Position numbers and translations under genes: made by a program. From positions 186,001 to 250,000 of the forward strand of contig NZ_CP087715.1 in the NCBI RefSeq assembly GCF_020991125.1: 64,000 nucleotides of DNA, written 5' to 3'. The stretch comes from Microbulbifer celer. GTDB lineage: Bacteria; Pseudomonadota; Gammaproteobacteria; Pseudomonadales; Cellvibrionaceae. This document shows positions 4,563-8,633 of the stretch, one piece after another (positions within the stretch are counted from its first letter, which is position 1; each line of letters starts with the position of its first letter). The notes beneath the pieces were generated by a model. That model did no database searches, had not been told where the DNA came from, and saw only the letters and a program-made list of their open reading frames with translations.

Positions 4563-5920
4563 TGGATCTCACTCACAAACTTCTTGGTAAAGGCGCTGGC
4601 AGACTCCTGGGTAAAACCGGACAGGGTGAAATGGCTCACCAGCGCGCGGTTGTCCTGATCCACCGTCAGGCTGACATAGAACACGTCGTACAGATCCGGG
4701 AACTCTTTGTAGCGGCGCACACAGTAGGAGGTACGGGCTACTACCGGTTCTGTGCTGCCATTGGCTCTGGGCGGTGTGACTTCCTGTTGCTCTGTGTCGT
4801 CACTGGCCGTGTCGCTGTCTGGTTTGTTGTCACCACCATCGCCATCACGGGGATGGGTGGTGAACTGCTGCTTGCAGTTGAAGTCGGTGACGTCATCTTC
4901 CCCGGCGCTGTTGCCCGGGTAGAAGCCGCTCATGTTTTCTTCGTAGACATTGTAAAAGCGGGTGGTACTGATCGGGTCGCGGGCTTCCAGCCAGAAAAAC
5001 TCGTATTCCACCCGGCCGGTATTGAACGTTTCCGACAGGTACACCACGTCCTGGCCAGTACAGCCCTTGGCGATCTGGGTCACCGGGTTGTCTTCATCTT
5101 CGTCGGAATTGCCCCAGCACTGAATGGACGGCACGATCGGCCCCACCACCATGGCGTCCCCCAGGGGGCGCAGCTGCCAGTTGGCCTCAAGCACTTCATC
5201 GATAATGCGCTGCTGATTGTTCAGTAACTGGCGGTGAATCACCTTTTGCAATTCCACTGCACCGTTGCTGCTGTCTTTCTTGAAGTCTGCCAGTAGGCTC
5301 ACCAGTTTGTTCACCGGTACCAGAAAACTGATCTGATTGCCGGCGGTGGCAACGTTGATTCCCACGACCTCACCGTTGCGATTGATCACCGGGCCGCCGC
5401 TCATGCCGGGGTTGATGGAGCCGGAGAAGTGGATACGGTCGTAGAAGCTGCCGCCGGCGATGCCGTTATAGGTGCCGGGTACCAGCGTCATGCCTAAATC
5501 CAGGGGATTGCCCATGGAGATGATGGTTTCCCCTTTACTGGGCGCGGTTTGCGCCAGCTGCAGGAACTTATCACCGGGCTTGCCCTTCTGGCGCAGGATG
5601 GCGAGGTCGTTGACGACATCGACGTCCAGCAGCTCCAGCTCACCTTCCTGTCCGTCGACGGAAAGGTATTGCAGATTGTATTTTTCGGGGTGACTGACGG
5701 CTTCGGAGACGACGTGGTAGTTGGTGGCGACCAGTCCGTTGGCGGAGATCTGGAACCCGGAGCCGAGCCCGGCCTTGGAATTGGAGGACTGCTCGATCAG
5801 CCGGATCTGGTAGAGGCTGCCCCGATATTCGCTGTAGAGCTGTTCGTAACTCTGTGCCCGGGTAACACTGGCACAACACAACAACAGCAGGGCGATCAGG
5901 CCCGTTAAAGGTTTCGACAT
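4553..5920 (-). CDS. Secreted trypsin-like serine protease (DegP/HtrA-like fold, no PDZ seen)
   Basis: A 455-residue protein with a signal peptide (residues 1-22, ending TRAQ). A chymotrypsin-fold protease domain spans about residues 40-215. The catalytic triad is visible: H69 in ATNYHVVS, D105 in VNDLAIL and S174 in NPGMSGGPVIN. After it comes about 240 residues without a recognised PDZ domain, including a Ser/Thr/Asp-rich low-complexity stretch near 365-390. Four or more cysteines in the C-terminal part suggest a disulfide-bonded periplasmic domain. It is the first gene of an overlapping pair with the FHA membrane protein, so a periplasmic proteolysis step may be linked to the cytoplasmic phospho-signalling. 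Confidence 0.87.
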   Translation of the reverse strand: MSKPLTGLIALLLLCCASVTRAQSYEQLYSEYRGSLYQIRLIEQSSNSKAGLGSGFQISANGLVATNYHVVSEAVSHPEKYNLQYLSVDGQEGELELLDVDVVNDLAILRQKGKPGDKFLQLAQTAPSKGETIISMGNPLDLGMTLVPGTYNGIAGGSFYDRIHFSGSINPGMSGGPVINRNGEVVGINVATAGNQISFLVPVNKLVSLLADFKKDSSNGAVELQKVIHRQLLNNQQRIIDEVLEANWQLRPLGDAMVVGPIVPSIQCWGNSDEDEDNPVTQIAKGCTGQDVVYLSETFNTGRVEYEFFWLEARDPISTTRFYNVYEENMSGFYPGNSAGEDDVTDFNCKQQFTTHPRDGDGGDNKPDSDTASDDTEQQEVTPPRANGSTEPVVARTSYCVRRYKEFPDLYDVFYVSLTVDQDNRALVSHFTLSGFTQESASAFTKKFVSEIQWH

Positions 5921-6226
5921 CTTGTTTTTTGGCGCTGATTAATTTGTGGGCGGAAGAGGCCTGATATTACGGGAACCCCGCGGGGGCAACAAGCCGGCCC
6001 GGCTTGCAAACTACTCCGTTTAATATAAGAAAGGCCGATTCGATAGTGTAGTGAATCTTGTGGCTGCTGGTTGAAGTGGAATGTGCGCCACAACACGCTG
6101 TCGTGTAATTGTGTGTAACGGCGTGTGATCGACCTGTAATGGGCTCGTCCGTAAAGTAGCGACCAAGGTTGAGGGACGCGATGCCCGGTCTTCACAGGAG
6201 CCGCGGCAAGGTGGATTGCAGACACC
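5921..6226. promoter_or_regulatory. Upstream region of the CsrB-like RNA with phased TGTAA motifs
   Basis: No gene was found. This region must hold the promoter of the small RNA on the plus strand and that of the protease on the minus strand. Three TGTAA motifs occur at 6104, 6114 and 6135, that is 10 and 21 bases apart, on one face of the helix. GacA/UvrY-family response regulators activate csrB/rsmZ genes from upstream sites containing TGTAAG, so these may be its binding sites. The complete palindromic GacA box is not present. No convincing -10/-35 pair was resolved. Confidence 0.4.
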
Positions 6227-6585
6227 CTGTTATCTGAGTCCGTTATGGAAGACGGCTGTATTCAAAGGAATAGGGGAGAGCGACGGAAATGCTCTCCACT
6301 CGGATAACAGTACCGCGCCTTCAGCTATTGCCAAAGGATTGGTAGCCGAATTGTTTTTGCTGGGATTTTTGCAGGAAAGTTCGGTAAGTCAGGAAGAGTT
6401 TCGGCGCAAGCCGGAAAGCCAGGCCGGCCCGGTAACCGCAGAGCCTAGGAAATCGGGATTTGGGGAAGGGTCTGGCGGGGGCACGGATGCCTCATTTTCG
6501 CTCTTGATAGTGTTGTTGTAACCGTAGATGGCTGGGACCATCTGATTCATACCGGCAGTAAGTTCGCTTACTGCCGGTTTTTTTT
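6227..6585 (+). ncRNA. CsrB/RsmZ-family CsrA-sequestering small RNA
   Basis: The transcript would be about 350 nt with 15 GGA motifs, against about 5 expected by chance. Several sit in hairpin loops, the hallmark of RNAs that titrate the CsrA/RsmA regulator. A 13-bp closing stem pairs CTGTTATCTGAGT (6227-6239) with ACTCGGATAACAG (6298-6310). Inside it are CCGT/ACGG with a loop containing TGGA (6240-6255) and GGAGAGC/GCTCTCC with loop GACGGAAAT (6275-6297). Further hairpins are CCAA/TTGG with an AGGA tetraloop (6331-6342), GGCA/TGCC with a CGGA tetraloop (6480-6491) and GATGG/CCATC with loop CTGGGA (6527-6542). It ends in a strong intrinsic terminator. The 5' end is approximate. Family assignment is by architecture, not by sequence match. 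Confidence 0.82.
6551..6585 (+). terminator. Strong intrinsic terminator of the CsrB-like RNA
   Basis: A perfect 12-bp stem, ACCGGCAGTAAG (6551-6562) with CTTACTGCCGGT (6567-6578), closes a TTCG tetraloop and runs into eight T residues. Confidence 0.93.
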
Positions 6586-6756
6586 CATCAAATTTTTATG
6601 GAACCCTGCAGATCGGTTGCAGTAAGCTATGTGACGTAGTTCTCGTTCTGAGGGCGCGTTTATTTCAGAGAGTATTTCAAGACCATTGGTTGCCCCGGAC
6701 GGTCGGCTGGGGAGAGTGAGCAGGTACTCACCATCAACAATAAAAGGGATGACAAC

Positions 6757-7254
6757 ATGAACAAAGCAGAAGTAGATAATTATTGCGAATCGTTGCCGGT
6801 GCTGGAGATCGAAGTGCCGGAAGACAAGATTGAAATCGATATGATGCTGCGCCCGACCGAGCCGGAAGACGGTGTGGCGCAGTACTGGCCGTTTTATGAA
6901 AAGTGCAATCCGAACGAGCTGTTCGGCAATATGGACTTTAAATTCGGTGGCCGTGGGGGCAAGGTGATTATCAATCTGGCCCTGGACCTTTCCGCCATAC
7001 CGGGCCGCGACCTGGAATTTGCCCTGAGTACCAGCCGCAAGCTGGATGGTATTCTGGCGCTAAGTCCGGATTTCAAGCATCAGTTCAAAACCACCGCCAA
7101 GCGGATTGATGGACGTTATACCGAGCTGAAGATTGTCATCAAGGACAAAGAGAAACGGCCGGATAACTTTAAGTTTCTGTGGCTGTGTGAGTGTGTGGAT
7201 GGTGGGATGCATTTTGTTTCTGGTGACCCGAGAGCCCAAATTGAACCTCTCTAG
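6757..7254 (+). CDS. Conserved-looking hypothetical protein, 165 aa
   Basis: A 165-residue soluble acidic protein starting MNKAEVDNYC, preceded by AGGGATG as ribosome-binding site about six bases upstream. No signal peptide, membrane segment or known motif is recognised. The N-terminal 40 residues are rich in Glu/Asp and Pro, and the middle has hydrophobic strand-like segments (GKVIINLALDLS near 68-79, ELKIVIKDK near 127-135) that suggest a beta-rich fold. Its stop codon shares the palindrome CTAG with the stop of the convergent broken kinase gene. It follows the CsrB-like RNA terminator on the same strand. The function is unknown. Confidence 0.72.
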   Translation: MNKAEVDNYCESLPVLEIEVPEDKIEIDMMLRPTEPEDGVAQYWPFYEKCNPNELFGNMDFKFGGRGGKVIINLALDLSAIPGRDLEFALSTSRKLDGILALSPDFKHQFKTTAKRIDGRYTELKIVIKDKEKRPDNFKFLWLCECVDGGMHFVSGDPRAQIEPL

Positions 7255-7586
7255 TCACAAATAATATCCTTTAGTTTTTCGGATGTCTGGGTATGAGGGC
7301 AGAGCTGTTCGAACGCCGATAAATTAAACCATTCTGCGCTCATACCTTGATCCACCAATTGCTGAGAATAATAAATAGCGGAGCCCCATTCTTTGGCTAA
7401 CGCATAAACTTGAGCGACAGTATATTTAACGTAGGTGTCGCTCGGAGCATCTCTAAGCAACTGGTGGGCTAAAGGGATGGCTTTTTCTGCCTGGTTAGTA
7501 TGGGCTAACGCTAGAGCATAATATTGTTGGTTTATCAGGCCAGTTTTGTTCTTCTTGGTTTCAAGTAATAACTGCAATTTCTTCAC
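7251..7586 (-). pseudogene. 3' fragment of kinase-TPR gene, cut off by IS30 insertion
   Basis: From 7556 down to the stop at 7251, this frame encodes the last 101 residues of the kinase gene that continues at 8634-10952. The fragment resembles the C-terminus of the paralogue at 11056-12054: compare NQAEKAIPLAHQLLRDAPSDTYVKYTVAQVY with the DQAEKAVENLIRIRRDAPDD segment there. Both insertion flanks fall on codon boundaries of the same frame, and the rejoined protein would be about 874 residues, close to the 879 of the frame-corrected paralogue. The first codons as it now stands (7586-7557, GTG start) derive from the IS end. It is a TPR-repeat piece and is unlikely to function alone. Confidence 0.85.
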
Positions 7587-8633
7587 GCAGCGAGCAAATC
7601 GTCTCGCTGCCCCATAAATAATTCATTTGGTGACTTGCCGCCTCGACTTTCTCTCGGCCTGCTGTTCAACCGATTCATAACAAAGTGAACCTGATCGTCC
7701 GTCACCTTGTTGAAGTCCGTTCCTTTTGGAAAATACTGCCGAATAAGACCGTTGGTGTTTTCATTGATCCCCCGCTCCCAAGAGGCGTAGGGGTGCGCGA
7801 AATAAATATCCGCGCCCAGCCCTCTGGCTATAACCTCATGTCCGGAGAACTCAAGCCCGTTGTCGAAGGTTATCGTTTTAATCTTGTCCTTCAGGTGAGC
7901 CATGTGAGCAACAGCTGCATCGGCCAGCAAGTCTGCTCGTTTACCCGTCAGTCGCACAATGACTGTAAACAATGTCTTGCGCTCAACCATCGTCAGCAAT
8001 GCTCCGCTGCGTCCCTTGCCAATGACAGTATCACCTTCCCAGTCTCCAATCCGACTCATCTGATCAACAACAACTGGACGTTCTTCTATACTCACCCTGT
8101 TTTTGATCTTTCCCCGCCGGTCGTAGCTGCCATAGCGTTTACGATATGGCTTGGACGCTATCCGCAGATGTGTATACAAATCCCCACCGCTGGCTTGATC
8201 TGCATAAATTATCTGGTAAATCGTTTCATGGTGTAGCGAAACACCTGTGTGCCTCTCCAAGTAGATCGCAGTCTGCTGCGGGCTTAAATCTTGCATGGTT
8301 AGCAGCTCAATCTGACGCTGCACCTCGTCGGTCACTTTCCGCGCCTTATGGGCCTCTCGTCGCCGGACATCTGATAGCTTATGGGCTTGACCAGGGCGAT
8401 ACCCTCGCAGCCCCGTATTTCTCCGCAGTTCTCGACTGATCGTCGATGGATGCCTTTCCAGCAGCTCCGCTATTTCTGCTTGTGAGTGTCCGGCTTTTCT
8501 CAGGCTGTAAATCTGGTATCGTTCGTTCTCGGTCAGCTGGTAGTAGCTCATCAGTGCTTTTCTCTTGGTCGGGAGAGGCGCCGACTCTACCAGCTGGCCT
8601 CTCTCTTACCAATTGCACTTATTATCCGAAACC
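7557..8633 (-). mobile_element. IS30-family insertion sequence, about 1077 bp
   Basis: A single transposase gene is bounded by imperfect inverted repeats of about 23 bases: GGTTTCGGATAATAAG then TGCAATT at the high-coordinate end, GGTTTCAAGTAATAAC then TGCAATT at the low end (19 of 23 match). The low-coordinate repeat contains the transposase stop codon. Total length is typical for the family. No unambiguous 2-3 bp target duplication can be named, so the exact edges may shift by a few bases. It sits inside the kinase-TPR gene in the same orientation as that gene. Confidence 0.85.
7583..8551 (-). CDS. IS30-family transposase
   Basis: A 322-residue DDE transposase. The N-terminal helix-turn-helix (LTENERYQIYSLRKAGHSQ.., then HPSTISRELRRN near residues 34-45) binds the inverted repeats. 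The catalytic core contains the first Asp in DWEGDTVIG, the second in TFDNGLEF, and the family-typical Glu region ERGINENTNGLIRQYFPKG. The frame is full length and undamaged, so the element may still be active. It ends LLAA within the terminal repeat. Confidence 0.95.
   Translation of the reverse strand: MSYYQLTENERYQIYSLRKAGHSQAEIAELLERHPSTISRELRRNTGLRGYRPGQAHKLSDVRRREAHKARKVTDEVQRQIELLTMQDLSPQQTAIYLERHTGVSLHHETIYQIIYADQASGGDLYTHLRIASKPYRKRYGSYDRRGKIKNRVSIEERPVVVDQMSRIGDWEGDTVIGKGRSGALLTMVERKTLFTVIVRLTGKRADLLADAAVAHMAHLKDKIKTITFDNGLEFSGHEVIARGLGADIYFAHPYASWERGINENTNGLIRQYFPKGTDFNKVTDDQVHFVMNRLNSRPRESRGGKSPNELFMGQRDDLLAA

What the first reader, a model, noticed from the sequence alone, without database searches (positions are those of the whole stretch)
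6227..6585. A CsrB/RsmZ-type RNA in the middle of a kinase-FHA locus
The sequence shows 15 GGA motifs in about 315 bases (chance about 5), at least five hairpins with GGA in the loop, a 13-bp closing stem, and a perfect 12-bp TTCG terminator. By established knowledge this combination defines CsrA-titrating RNAs; the sequence itself is poorly conserved in that family, so automated searches can miss it. Its position between phospho-signalling genes suggests a link between Ser/Thr kinase signalling and post-transcriptional control.
Basis: partly seen in the sequence, partly recalled or inferred. Interest (0 to 1): 0.78.

Follow-up and report, generated by a model that had tools for sequence, protein, structure and literature searches.

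The report
Second CsrA-binding RNA of Microbulbifer
This stretch very probably encodes a large folded small RNA, kept across the marine genus Microbulbifer, that looks built to soak up the regulator protein CsrA but sits behind a different genetic switch from the genus's usual RNA of that kind.

Summary
Window 6164-6585 (+) is a structured non-coding RNA, present in 37 of 37 Microbulbifer genomes searched and not detected outside the genus. It starts about 63 nt before the given start. It has a predicted promoter, a 12-bp TTCG terminator and covarying helices. ANGGAN hexaloops, the CsrA/RsmE recognition element, average 2.37 per copy against 0.10 in shuffles. At homologous hairpins the A and GGA are nearly fixed while the second loop base and the stems change. 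The host CsrA keeps L4 and R44.

CsrB and RsmY models find no Microbulbifer match above cut-off. All 37 genomes carry a separate, compact Rsm-type RNA, about 8.7 kb upstream here, behind a GacA-type box in the 30 copies inspected. The RNA in question lacks that box. Its promoter has four TGTAAT-like direct repeats; in three other genomes near-identical operators precede large genes (three RHS/SpvB proteins, one Ig-like). A near-invariant 3' domain is unexplained by CsrA binding.

Best reading: a second, non-Gac, Csr-type sponge RNA, possibly with a second function. CsrA binding and expression were not tested. A functional link to the neighbouring kinases is not supported.

The parts
6104..6140 (+). 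Operator: four TGTAAT-like direct repeats at 6104, 6114, 6124, 6135 (spacing 10, 10, 11), consensus TGTAATNNCGTGTAATGGCGTGTGATCGACCTGTAAT
   Evidence: Seen before the 46 RNA copies located by the core (0-3 mismatches in its 17-nt part) and before the RNA in 37 of 37 Microbulbifer genomes at <=1 mismatch to a looser pattern (not every one of the multiple copies); only site in own genome at <=3 mismatches to the stricter pattern
6129..6157 (+). Predicted sigma-70 promoter: -35 TCGACC (6129-6134), 17-nt spacer, -10 TAAAGT (6152-6157)
   Evidence: Hexamer 11 nt after the last repeat: TANAGT in 36 of 46 copies, TANATT in 8, others in 2; start site inferred, not mapped
6164..6585 (+). Full small RNA gene (about 422 nt)
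   Evidence: Promoter and terminator conservation; 28 of 121 pairs with both-side compensatory change in a 9-sequence full-length alignment
6167..6325 (+). Outer helix P1 of the 5' domain (6167-6179 with 6315-6325)
   Evidence: same helix by eye in the divergent G007 copy
6227..6310 (+). 13-bp stem (6227-6239 / 6298-6310) enclosing further hairpins
   Evidence: compensatory pairs
6240..6255 (+). Hairpin CCGTT-ATGGAA-GACGG, ANGGAN hexaloop
   Evidence: 14 of 14 long-form copies keep A, GGA and the last A; position 2 is T5 C7 A2; stem covaries
6328..6345 (+). Hairpin TTGCCA-AAGGAT-TGGTAG, ANGGAN hexaloop (H-A)
   Evidence: 46 copies: A 45, N A20/T24/C2, G 41, G 44, A 42, N T28/C16/A2
6400..6415 (+). 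GNRA-type capped hairpin (loop GCAA)
   Evidence: Two pairs with both-side change in the 33-sequence alignment
6418..6476 (+). Long helix P4 (6418-6425 / 6469-6476) holding an inner stem with the conserved loop CACAGAGCCTA
   Evidence: 12 of the 14 both-side compensatory pairs lie in these two stems
6478..6493 (+). Hairpin P5 GGGGC-ACGGAT-GCCTC, ANGGAN hexaloop
   Evidence: 46 copies: A 46, second position C25/A11/T5/G1/gap 4, G 45, G 46, A 46
6498..6525 (+). Near-invariant 3' core UCGCUCUUGAUAGUGUUGUUGUAACCGU, function unknown
   Evidence: 21-nt part found in 31 stretches, all titled Microbulbifer; partly lost in G007
6527..6542 (+). Hairpin P6 GATGG-CTGGGA-CCATC
   Evidence: Stem nearly invariant in 33 distinct sequences
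6551..6585 (+). Intrinsic terminator, 12-bp stem, TTCG loop, T run
   Evidence: stem conserved
6757..7254 (+). Neighbouring fast-evolving 165-aa protein gene, no known family; syntenic, role unknown

Best explanation
Window 6164-6585 encodes a genus-specific Csr/Rsm-type sponge RNA of Microbulbifer. It is transcribed from a dedicated sigma-70 promoter under a direct-repeat-binding activator (inferred; repeat spacing and position resemble OmpR/PhoB-family sites, recalled) and ends at an intrinsic terminator. This copy presents three ANGGAN hexaloop hairpins (0 to 4 in other copies) plus further GGA motifs. These bind CsrA dimers and lower free CsrA, so CsrA-repressed mRNAs are released when the activator fires (inferred). 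It would act beside a separate Gac-type Rsm RNA, giving the CsrA pool a second input. Shown by sequence: RNA-type conservation and structure, hexaloop enrichment, conserved promoter-like block and terminator, absence of a GacA box, presence of the separate Gac-type RNA, a host CsrA with L4 and R44. Inferred: transcription, CsrA binding, the activator and the physiological effect.
For: 15 GGA. 46 copies in 36 genomes: mean GGA 11.4 against 8.0 shuffled, GGA in hairpin loops 3.85 against 0.85 (10 shuffles a copy). ANGGAN hexaloops with >=3-bp stems 2.37 against 0.10 shuffled, present in 44 of 46 copies; in 37 of 46 at most 1 of 100 shuffles reaches the count; A at loop position 1 in 109 of 132 NNGGAN hexaloops. 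Columns counted without selecting for the motif keep A and GGA nearly fixed while position 2 and closing pairs change. No 422-nt window of the 64 kb, either strand, holds more than the 3 hexaloops of this RNA. Covariation: 14 of 31 pairs and 28 of 121. The most divergent copy (G007) keeps CCCG-ATGGAC-TGGG and AGC-AGGGAT-GCT, read by eye. Own CsrA has L4 and R44. The ANGGAN hexaloop as RsmE/RsmN recognition element is stated in PMC7652899 and PMC3791407 (passages).
Against: No binding or expression data. Both G006 copies have no ANGGAN hexaloop and only 4 and 6 GGA, although that genome has 9 CsrA-family matches; 7 further copies have one hexaloop, which 4 or more of 100 shuffles also reach. 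In the 7 genomes with 5-19 CsrA matches the 9 copies average 1.0 hexaloop, against 2.70 in the other 37, so the sites are not indispensable. One control does not discriminate: as a fraction of its own occurrences GGA is in hexaloop positions 3-5 (0.252) no more than CAA (0.250) or TGA (0.234), which sit in conserved hairpins of the same RNA. The best conserved part, the 3' core and P6, is not needed for CsrA binding as known. No GacA box, no Csr/Rsm model match. CsrA was found in 33 of 37 genus genomes, one partial; the four misses are unresolved, and the partial one is cut by a withheld N stretch.
Confidence: 0.74

Rival explanations
1. A structured regulatory RNA whose main work is done by its invariant 3' domain (base pairing with mRNAs or binding another protein), with CsrA binding secondary, as for McaS-like RNAs that pair with mRNAs and also bind CsrA.
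For: The 3' core and the P6 stem are near-invariant in 33 distinct sequences while the 5' domain is rebuilt between clades; U-rich stretch before the terminator; hexaloops lost in both G006 copies while the core stays. McaS and GadY as base-pairing RNAs that bind CsrA: PMC7652899 (passages).
Against: ANGGAN hexaloops are strongly enriched and kept, and two survive by eye in G007, where part of the core is lost. No target was found, and none was sought systematically.
Confidence: 0.33
2. A 5' leader of the downstream 165-aa gene: a conditional terminator (riboswitch-like attenuator).
For: The gene follows on the same strand at the main RNA locus of most genomes; strong terminator in between.
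Against: In G023 and G034 only one of five RNA copies each is followed by this family; in G001 the match to the protein is on another contig than the RNA. No antiterminator appears in the consensus fold, though none was sought by a dedicated search.
Confidence: 0.08
3. A protein-coding or antisense-coding stretch that looks like RNA by chance.
For: A 101-aa ORF (6216-6521) overlaps it; antisense ORFs of one single-linkage cluster overlap 14 of 46 copies, and those of another cluster lie at 10.
Against: Anchored at the core, no frame is open in all copies: the best is >=50 aa (stop to stop) in 31 of 46, and the minimum over copies is 9-31 aa in the six frames. Single-base indels lie on both sides of the core; many compensatory pairs.
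Confidence: 0.02

Closest known systems
CsrB/CsrC (E. coli) and Rfam RF00018
   Same: Many GGA motifs in hairpin loops, intrinsic terminator, size of the order of 350-420 nt
   Different: No match to the CsrB model in 37 Microbulbifer genomes at E 0.1 (strict filters); own covarying architecture, invariant 3' domain, other promoter
RsmY/RsmZ of Pseudomonas
   Same: ANGGAN hexaloop hairpins such as AAGGAU of RsmZ-2 (PMC3791407, passages)
   Different: About 420 or 300 nt instead of about 120 (sizes in PMC9308961, passages); no GacA box; no RsmY match above cut-off in Microbulbifer
Microbulbifer Gac-type RNA (G000:C1:183509-183650, outside the window)
   Same: Same genus, GGA hairpins, terminator; found in 37 of 37 genomes, same neighbourhood in many
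   Different: About 140 nt; GacA-type palindrome at -69 (-72 in one) in 30 of 30 copies inspected, with 0-3 mismatches; one ANGGAN hexaloop in 22 and none in 8 of these 30
RsmV and RsmW of P. aeruginosa
   Same: Additional RsmA-sequestering RNAs beside the classical pair (PMC9308961, passages)
   Different: Other sequences and sizes (192 and 224 nt); RsmW is derived from a 3' UTR
McaS and GadY of E. coli
   Same: Base-pairing RNAs that also bind CsrA through GGA motifs (PMC7652899, passages)
   Different: 'At least two GGA motifs' reported there; 18 GGA here; base pairing here is only a hypothesis
Pf2 and Pf3 of Pseudoalteromonas fuliginea
   Same: Additional Csr RNAs first recognised by GGA motifs, putative promoters and terminators (PMC11882849, passages)
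   Different: Other genus; examined by experiment

Membership tests
CsrA-sequestering small RNA (functional class) | Multiple GGA motifs in hairpin loops, ANGGAN hexaloops | tested here: met
   for this copy and the enrichment; exceptions: both G006 copies have no hexaloop
CsrA-sequestering small RNA (functional class) | Own promoter and intrinsic terminator, non-coding | tested here: met
   promoter predicted from conservation, not mapped
CsrA-sequestering small RNA (functional class) | CsrA with L4 and R44 in the host | tested here: met
   Own genome one CsrA; 33 of 37 genus genomes, misses unresolved
CsrA-sequestering small RNA (functional class) | Physical binding and titration of CsrA | not testable with these tools
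   Needs gel shift or CLIP-seq
CsrB family (Rfam RF00018) | Match to the covariance model at the gathering score | tested here: not met
   0 of 37 Microbulbifer genomes even at E 0.1 (strict filters, 21 candidates scored per genome)
RsmY family (Rfam RF00195) | Match at the gathering score | tested here: not met
   none over cut-off in 37 genomes; weak sub-cut-off hits in 35 of 37
PrrB/RsmZ family (Rfam RF00166) | Match at the gathering score | tested here: not met
   Scan of the window with all Rfam models; other genomes not searched with this family
Gac/UvrY-controlled Csr RNA | TGTAAGN6CTTACA-type upstream box | tested here: not met
   None at <=1 mismatch in the window; of the exact boxes found in 13 genus genomes, all but one each in G016 and G018 precede the other RNA
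Dual-function base-pairing sRNA (McaS-like) | Conserved seed pairing with target mRNAs | not tested
   Only the near-invariant 3' core is known

The most novel reading that the evidence does not exclude
A dual-function RNA: ANGGAN hairpins that sequester CsrA, joined to an invariant 3' domain with a separate target, under an activator shared with secreted RHS/SpvB-type proteins. It would release CsrA-repressed functions together with a polymorphic-toxin-like programme, bypassing Gac signalling.
Probability: 0.25. Interest if true: 0.72.

Novelty: new variant of a known kind. Interest (0 to 1): 0.52.

Why it matters
Csr RNAs are poorly conserved and easily missed by models. This one is kept genus-wide, is larger and more elaborately folded than the Gac-type RNA of the same genomes, and has another input. 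It would show how a second signal can be plugged into the CsrA pool. The conserved 3' domain and the operator shared with large secreted proteins give concrete tests. Genomes with many CsrA-family genes and fewer sites in this RNA offer a natural experiment on RNA-CsrA co-evolution.

Tried and rejected
Rfam at gathering score and, around the RNA, at E up to 10 gave only hits of other families with scores far under their cut-offs. RsmY hits in Microbulbifer at E below 0.1 were many and weak; many of those listed cover only model positions 90-121 (terminator). Of the longer ones I read five by eye (L108-L111, L114) and saw terminators or coding ends, no shared RNA; L112 did not print. G416's weak model hit (E 0.006 among 390 genomes) was taken as chance. 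Phages (blastn, 6200-6600), plasmids (blastn, 6410-6600) and IMG/VR (exact 21-mer) held no match. A coding reading was rejected. An OmpR/PhoB-type activator is an analogy from repeat spacing, recalled and not tested. Base-pairing targets were not sought: the last whole-genome search went to the operator.

Literature: the listings for 'Microbulbifer + small RNA' (5 papers) and 'Microbulbifer + CsrA' (2 papers) showed no paper with Microbulbifer small RNAs or CsrA in its title; only listings were seen. Of PMC7652899, PMC3791407, PMC9308961 and PMC11882849 only passages were read.

A structure prediction of the 165-aa neighbour was asked for 12 times and the machine was busy each time. One structure count failed because my bracket string was one character too long and was not repeated. 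A first version of the GGA script crashed and was rerun with a fixed start offset. Alignments A1 and A2 mixed strands and were replaced by A3. A6 holds 33 of the 45 distinct 3' domains listed; 12 that I judged near-duplicates were left out, and G007 was never in it. In A8 the G002 row was cut short of its 5' end; G002 was left out of the fold, as were G021, G025, G026 and G032. One search was a filing of this report that failed its format check.

Full report
What is there. Window 6227-6585 contains the reported features: 15 GGA (mean of equal-length + strand windows 5.8; 0.27% of windows reach 15, windows on the RNA included), a 13-bp stem with one G-U and a perfect 12-bp TTCG terminator with a T run. 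The fold is z = -4.4 against shuffles. Rfam gives no match at gathering score in the window, and none of the Csr/Rsm kind at E up to 10 in 5920-6760.

Distribution. BLASTN finds the RNA in the own genome and 36 of 36 same-genus genomes, and in none of the 21 same-order genomes of the set. A 21-nt core pattern scanned over GTDB contigs gives 31 stretches, all titled Microbulbifer, and none in IMG/VR. Phages and plasmids have no match. A covariance model of the 3' domain (R1, built from 33 distinct sequences) run on 390 genomes of the order finds Microbulbifer (9 genomes, among them G242, not in the first set) and none of the 9 same-family genomes of other genera that are listed; one hit at E 0.006 elsewhere is at chance level (strict filters, 7 candidates scored per genome, 360 genomes without match not listed). 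G023 and G034 carry five copies each within 26 and 20 kb, G006 and G010 two each.

Boundaries. The 46 copies located by the core (36 genomes; G007 handled apart) share an upstream block, TGTAATNNCG TGTAATGGCG TGTGATCGACC TGTAAT, with 0-3 mismatches in its last 17 nt. A -10-like hexamer follows 11 nt later: TANAGT in 36 of 46, TANATT in 8, others in 2. In the window the repeats lie at 6104, 6114, 6124 and 6135 and the -10 at 6152-6157, so the RNA should start near 6164. The 5' end GGUUGAGG pairs with CCUUCAGC-type strands at 6315-6325. The full RNA is about 422 nt; 14 of 46 copies are long (404-580 nt) and 32 are 281-318 nt.

Structure. In the 3' domain 14 of 31 pairs show both-side compensatory change (33 sequences). 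In a full-length alignment of 9 of the 14 long-form sequences 28 of 121 pairs do. No reading frame anchored at the core is open in all copies: the best is >=50 aa in 31 of 46, and the minimum over copies is 9-31 aa in the six frames. Single-base indels flank the core. This is RNA-type conservation.

CsrA-type sites. In 46 copies GGA averages 11.4 against 8.0 in shuffles, and GGA in MFE hairpin loops 3.85 against 0.85. Hexaloops ANGGAN closed by at least 3 bp average 2.37 against 0.10; 44 of 46 copies have one or more, and in 37 of 46 at most 1 of 100 shuffles reaches the count; the other nine are G003, G004, both of G006, both of G010, G011, G014 and G031. Among NNGGAN hexaloops position 1 is A in 109 of 132. 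GGA is the most frequent of the 64 trinucleotides at loop positions 3-5, but relative to its own abundance it (0.252) does not exceed CAA (0.250) or TGA (0.234), which lie in other conserved hairpins. In the 64-kb window no 422-nt stretch on either strand holds more than the three of this RNA. Counted without selecting for the motif, hairpin H-A shows A 45/46, N variable, G 41, G 44, A 42, N variable, with the stem pair next to the loop changing from A-T to G-C or G-T; P5 shows A 46, G 45, G 46, A 46 with a variable second position; the long-form 5' hairpin shows A and GGA (and the last A) fixed in 14 of 14, with a variable second position. Shared descent inflates such counts, but the hairpins differ between clades, and the change falls mainly on the loop positions that PMC7652899 calls variable. 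PMC7652899 and PMC3791407 (passages) describe the ANGGAN hexaloop as the recognition element.

The host has one CsrA, with L4 and R44 by position count. CsrA-family matches were found in 33 of 37 genus genomes; G008's is partial and ends at a withheld N stretch, and G018, G019, G027 and G028 had none and are unresolved. Seven genomes have 5-19 matches; their nine RNA copies average 1.0 hexaloop against 2.70 in the other 37, and both G006 copies have none. These genomes may be one clade (no tree was made), so this may be one observation; it counts against strict necessity of the sites.

A second, Gac-type RNA. Exact GacA boxes were found in 13 of 37 genus genomes. Twelve of them hold the same box, TGTAAGACATCTCTTACA; in the 11 that I read it is followed by a GGA-rich RNA of about 140 nt with terminator, and in the twelfth (G018) the model below places the RNA at the same distance. 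In the own genome the box is at G000:C1:183440, 2.56 kb before the window and about 8.7 kb upstream of the RNA's operator. A model from those 11 (R2) finds the RNA in 37 of 37 genus genomes (weakest G007, E 3.8e-5) and 0 of 21 others. In the 30 copies inspected (L151-L180) a box-like palindrome lies at -69 (-72 in one), with 0 mismatches to TGTAAGN6CTTACA in 12, 1 in 6, 2 in 2 and 3 in 10; a stray 3-mismatch hit at -109 in L164 shows that such matches can be chance, but the position is constant. One ANGGAN hexaloop was found in 22 of these 30 and none in 8. The RNA of this finding has no such box at <=1 mismatch. So the genus has a compact Gac-type Rsm RNA, and this RNA is a second, differently controlled one.

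The operator elsewhere. With one mismatch allowed, TGTAATN4TGTNATN5TGTAAT occurs before the RNA in 37 of 37 genus genomes, and in 1 of 21 others; the reversed control pattern is found in 1 of 58 genomes. I examined the four most similar extra sites, in G016, G023 (two) and G034; each precedes a large gene with a signal-peptide-like start, with a -10-like element at a similar distance by eye. Against a weight matrix of the 46 RNA promoters three of the four score 25-39 and one (G023:C5) -5.7, where the RNA's own promoter scores 80.7 and the next site of the window -28. Three of the proteins (2108, 2169 and 2160 aa) match RHS repeat and SpvB and are 45-54% identical to the window's own 2104-aa RHS protein over most of their length; the fourth (620 aa, G034) has Ig-like and cadherin-like domains and only weak similarity (25% over 237 aa). 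Extra hits in G001, G011, G023 (C2:265454), G028, G032 and G047 were not examined. The window's own RHS gene has no such operator.

Neighbourhood. The order FHA gene, protease, RNA, 165-aa gene, kinase on the opposite strand recurs with variants. Kinase proximity is inherited synteny and gives no evidence of regulation.

Conclusion. A structured RNA gene is nearly certain. A CsrA sponge is the best explanation (0.74): it works like RsmZ/CsrB but is not a member of those sequence families by the models used. The invariant 3' domain suggests an additional, unknown task.

Noticed in passing
G000:C1:183440-183650 (2.56 kb before the window; locus L135): A Gac-type Rsm RNA of about 140 nt with a GacA box at -69; the RNA is found in 37 of 37 Microbulbifer genomes. 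The CsrB and RsmY searches gave no match above cut-off in these genomes.
   Followed up: yes
L190, L191, L192, L193 (G016, G023 twice, G034): Operators like the RNA's also precede large secreted-looking proteins, three of RHS/SpvB type.
   Followed up: partly
G003, G004, G006, G009, G010, G014, G030: Five to nineteen CsrA-family matches per genome, against one in most of the genus.
   Followed up: no
window 6757-7254 and loci L072-L102: A fast-evolving 165-aa protein family (18-85% identity to the window copy in 23 relatives), next to the RNA and kinase; the window copy has no Pfam or NCBIfam match.
   Followed up: partly
L056, L057, L068, L069 (G023, G034): Five RNA copies in a row with their operators. 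In G034 a Mutator-family transposase and a C39-peptidase ABC exporter with a second ABC protein lie between them; G023 was not searched for families.
   Followed up: partly
L010, L011 and L014 (G025, G021, G002): A long palindromic insert with CTCACACTAAATTCGA arms sits inside the RNA between P1 and hairpin H-A.
   Followed up: no
window 7583-8551 (-): An IS30-family transposase lies between the 165-aa gene and the kinase in the own genome.
   Followed up: no
L040 (G007): The most divergent RNA copy lacks part of the 3' core but keeps P1, the terminator and, by eye, two ANGGAN hairpins.
   Followed up: partly
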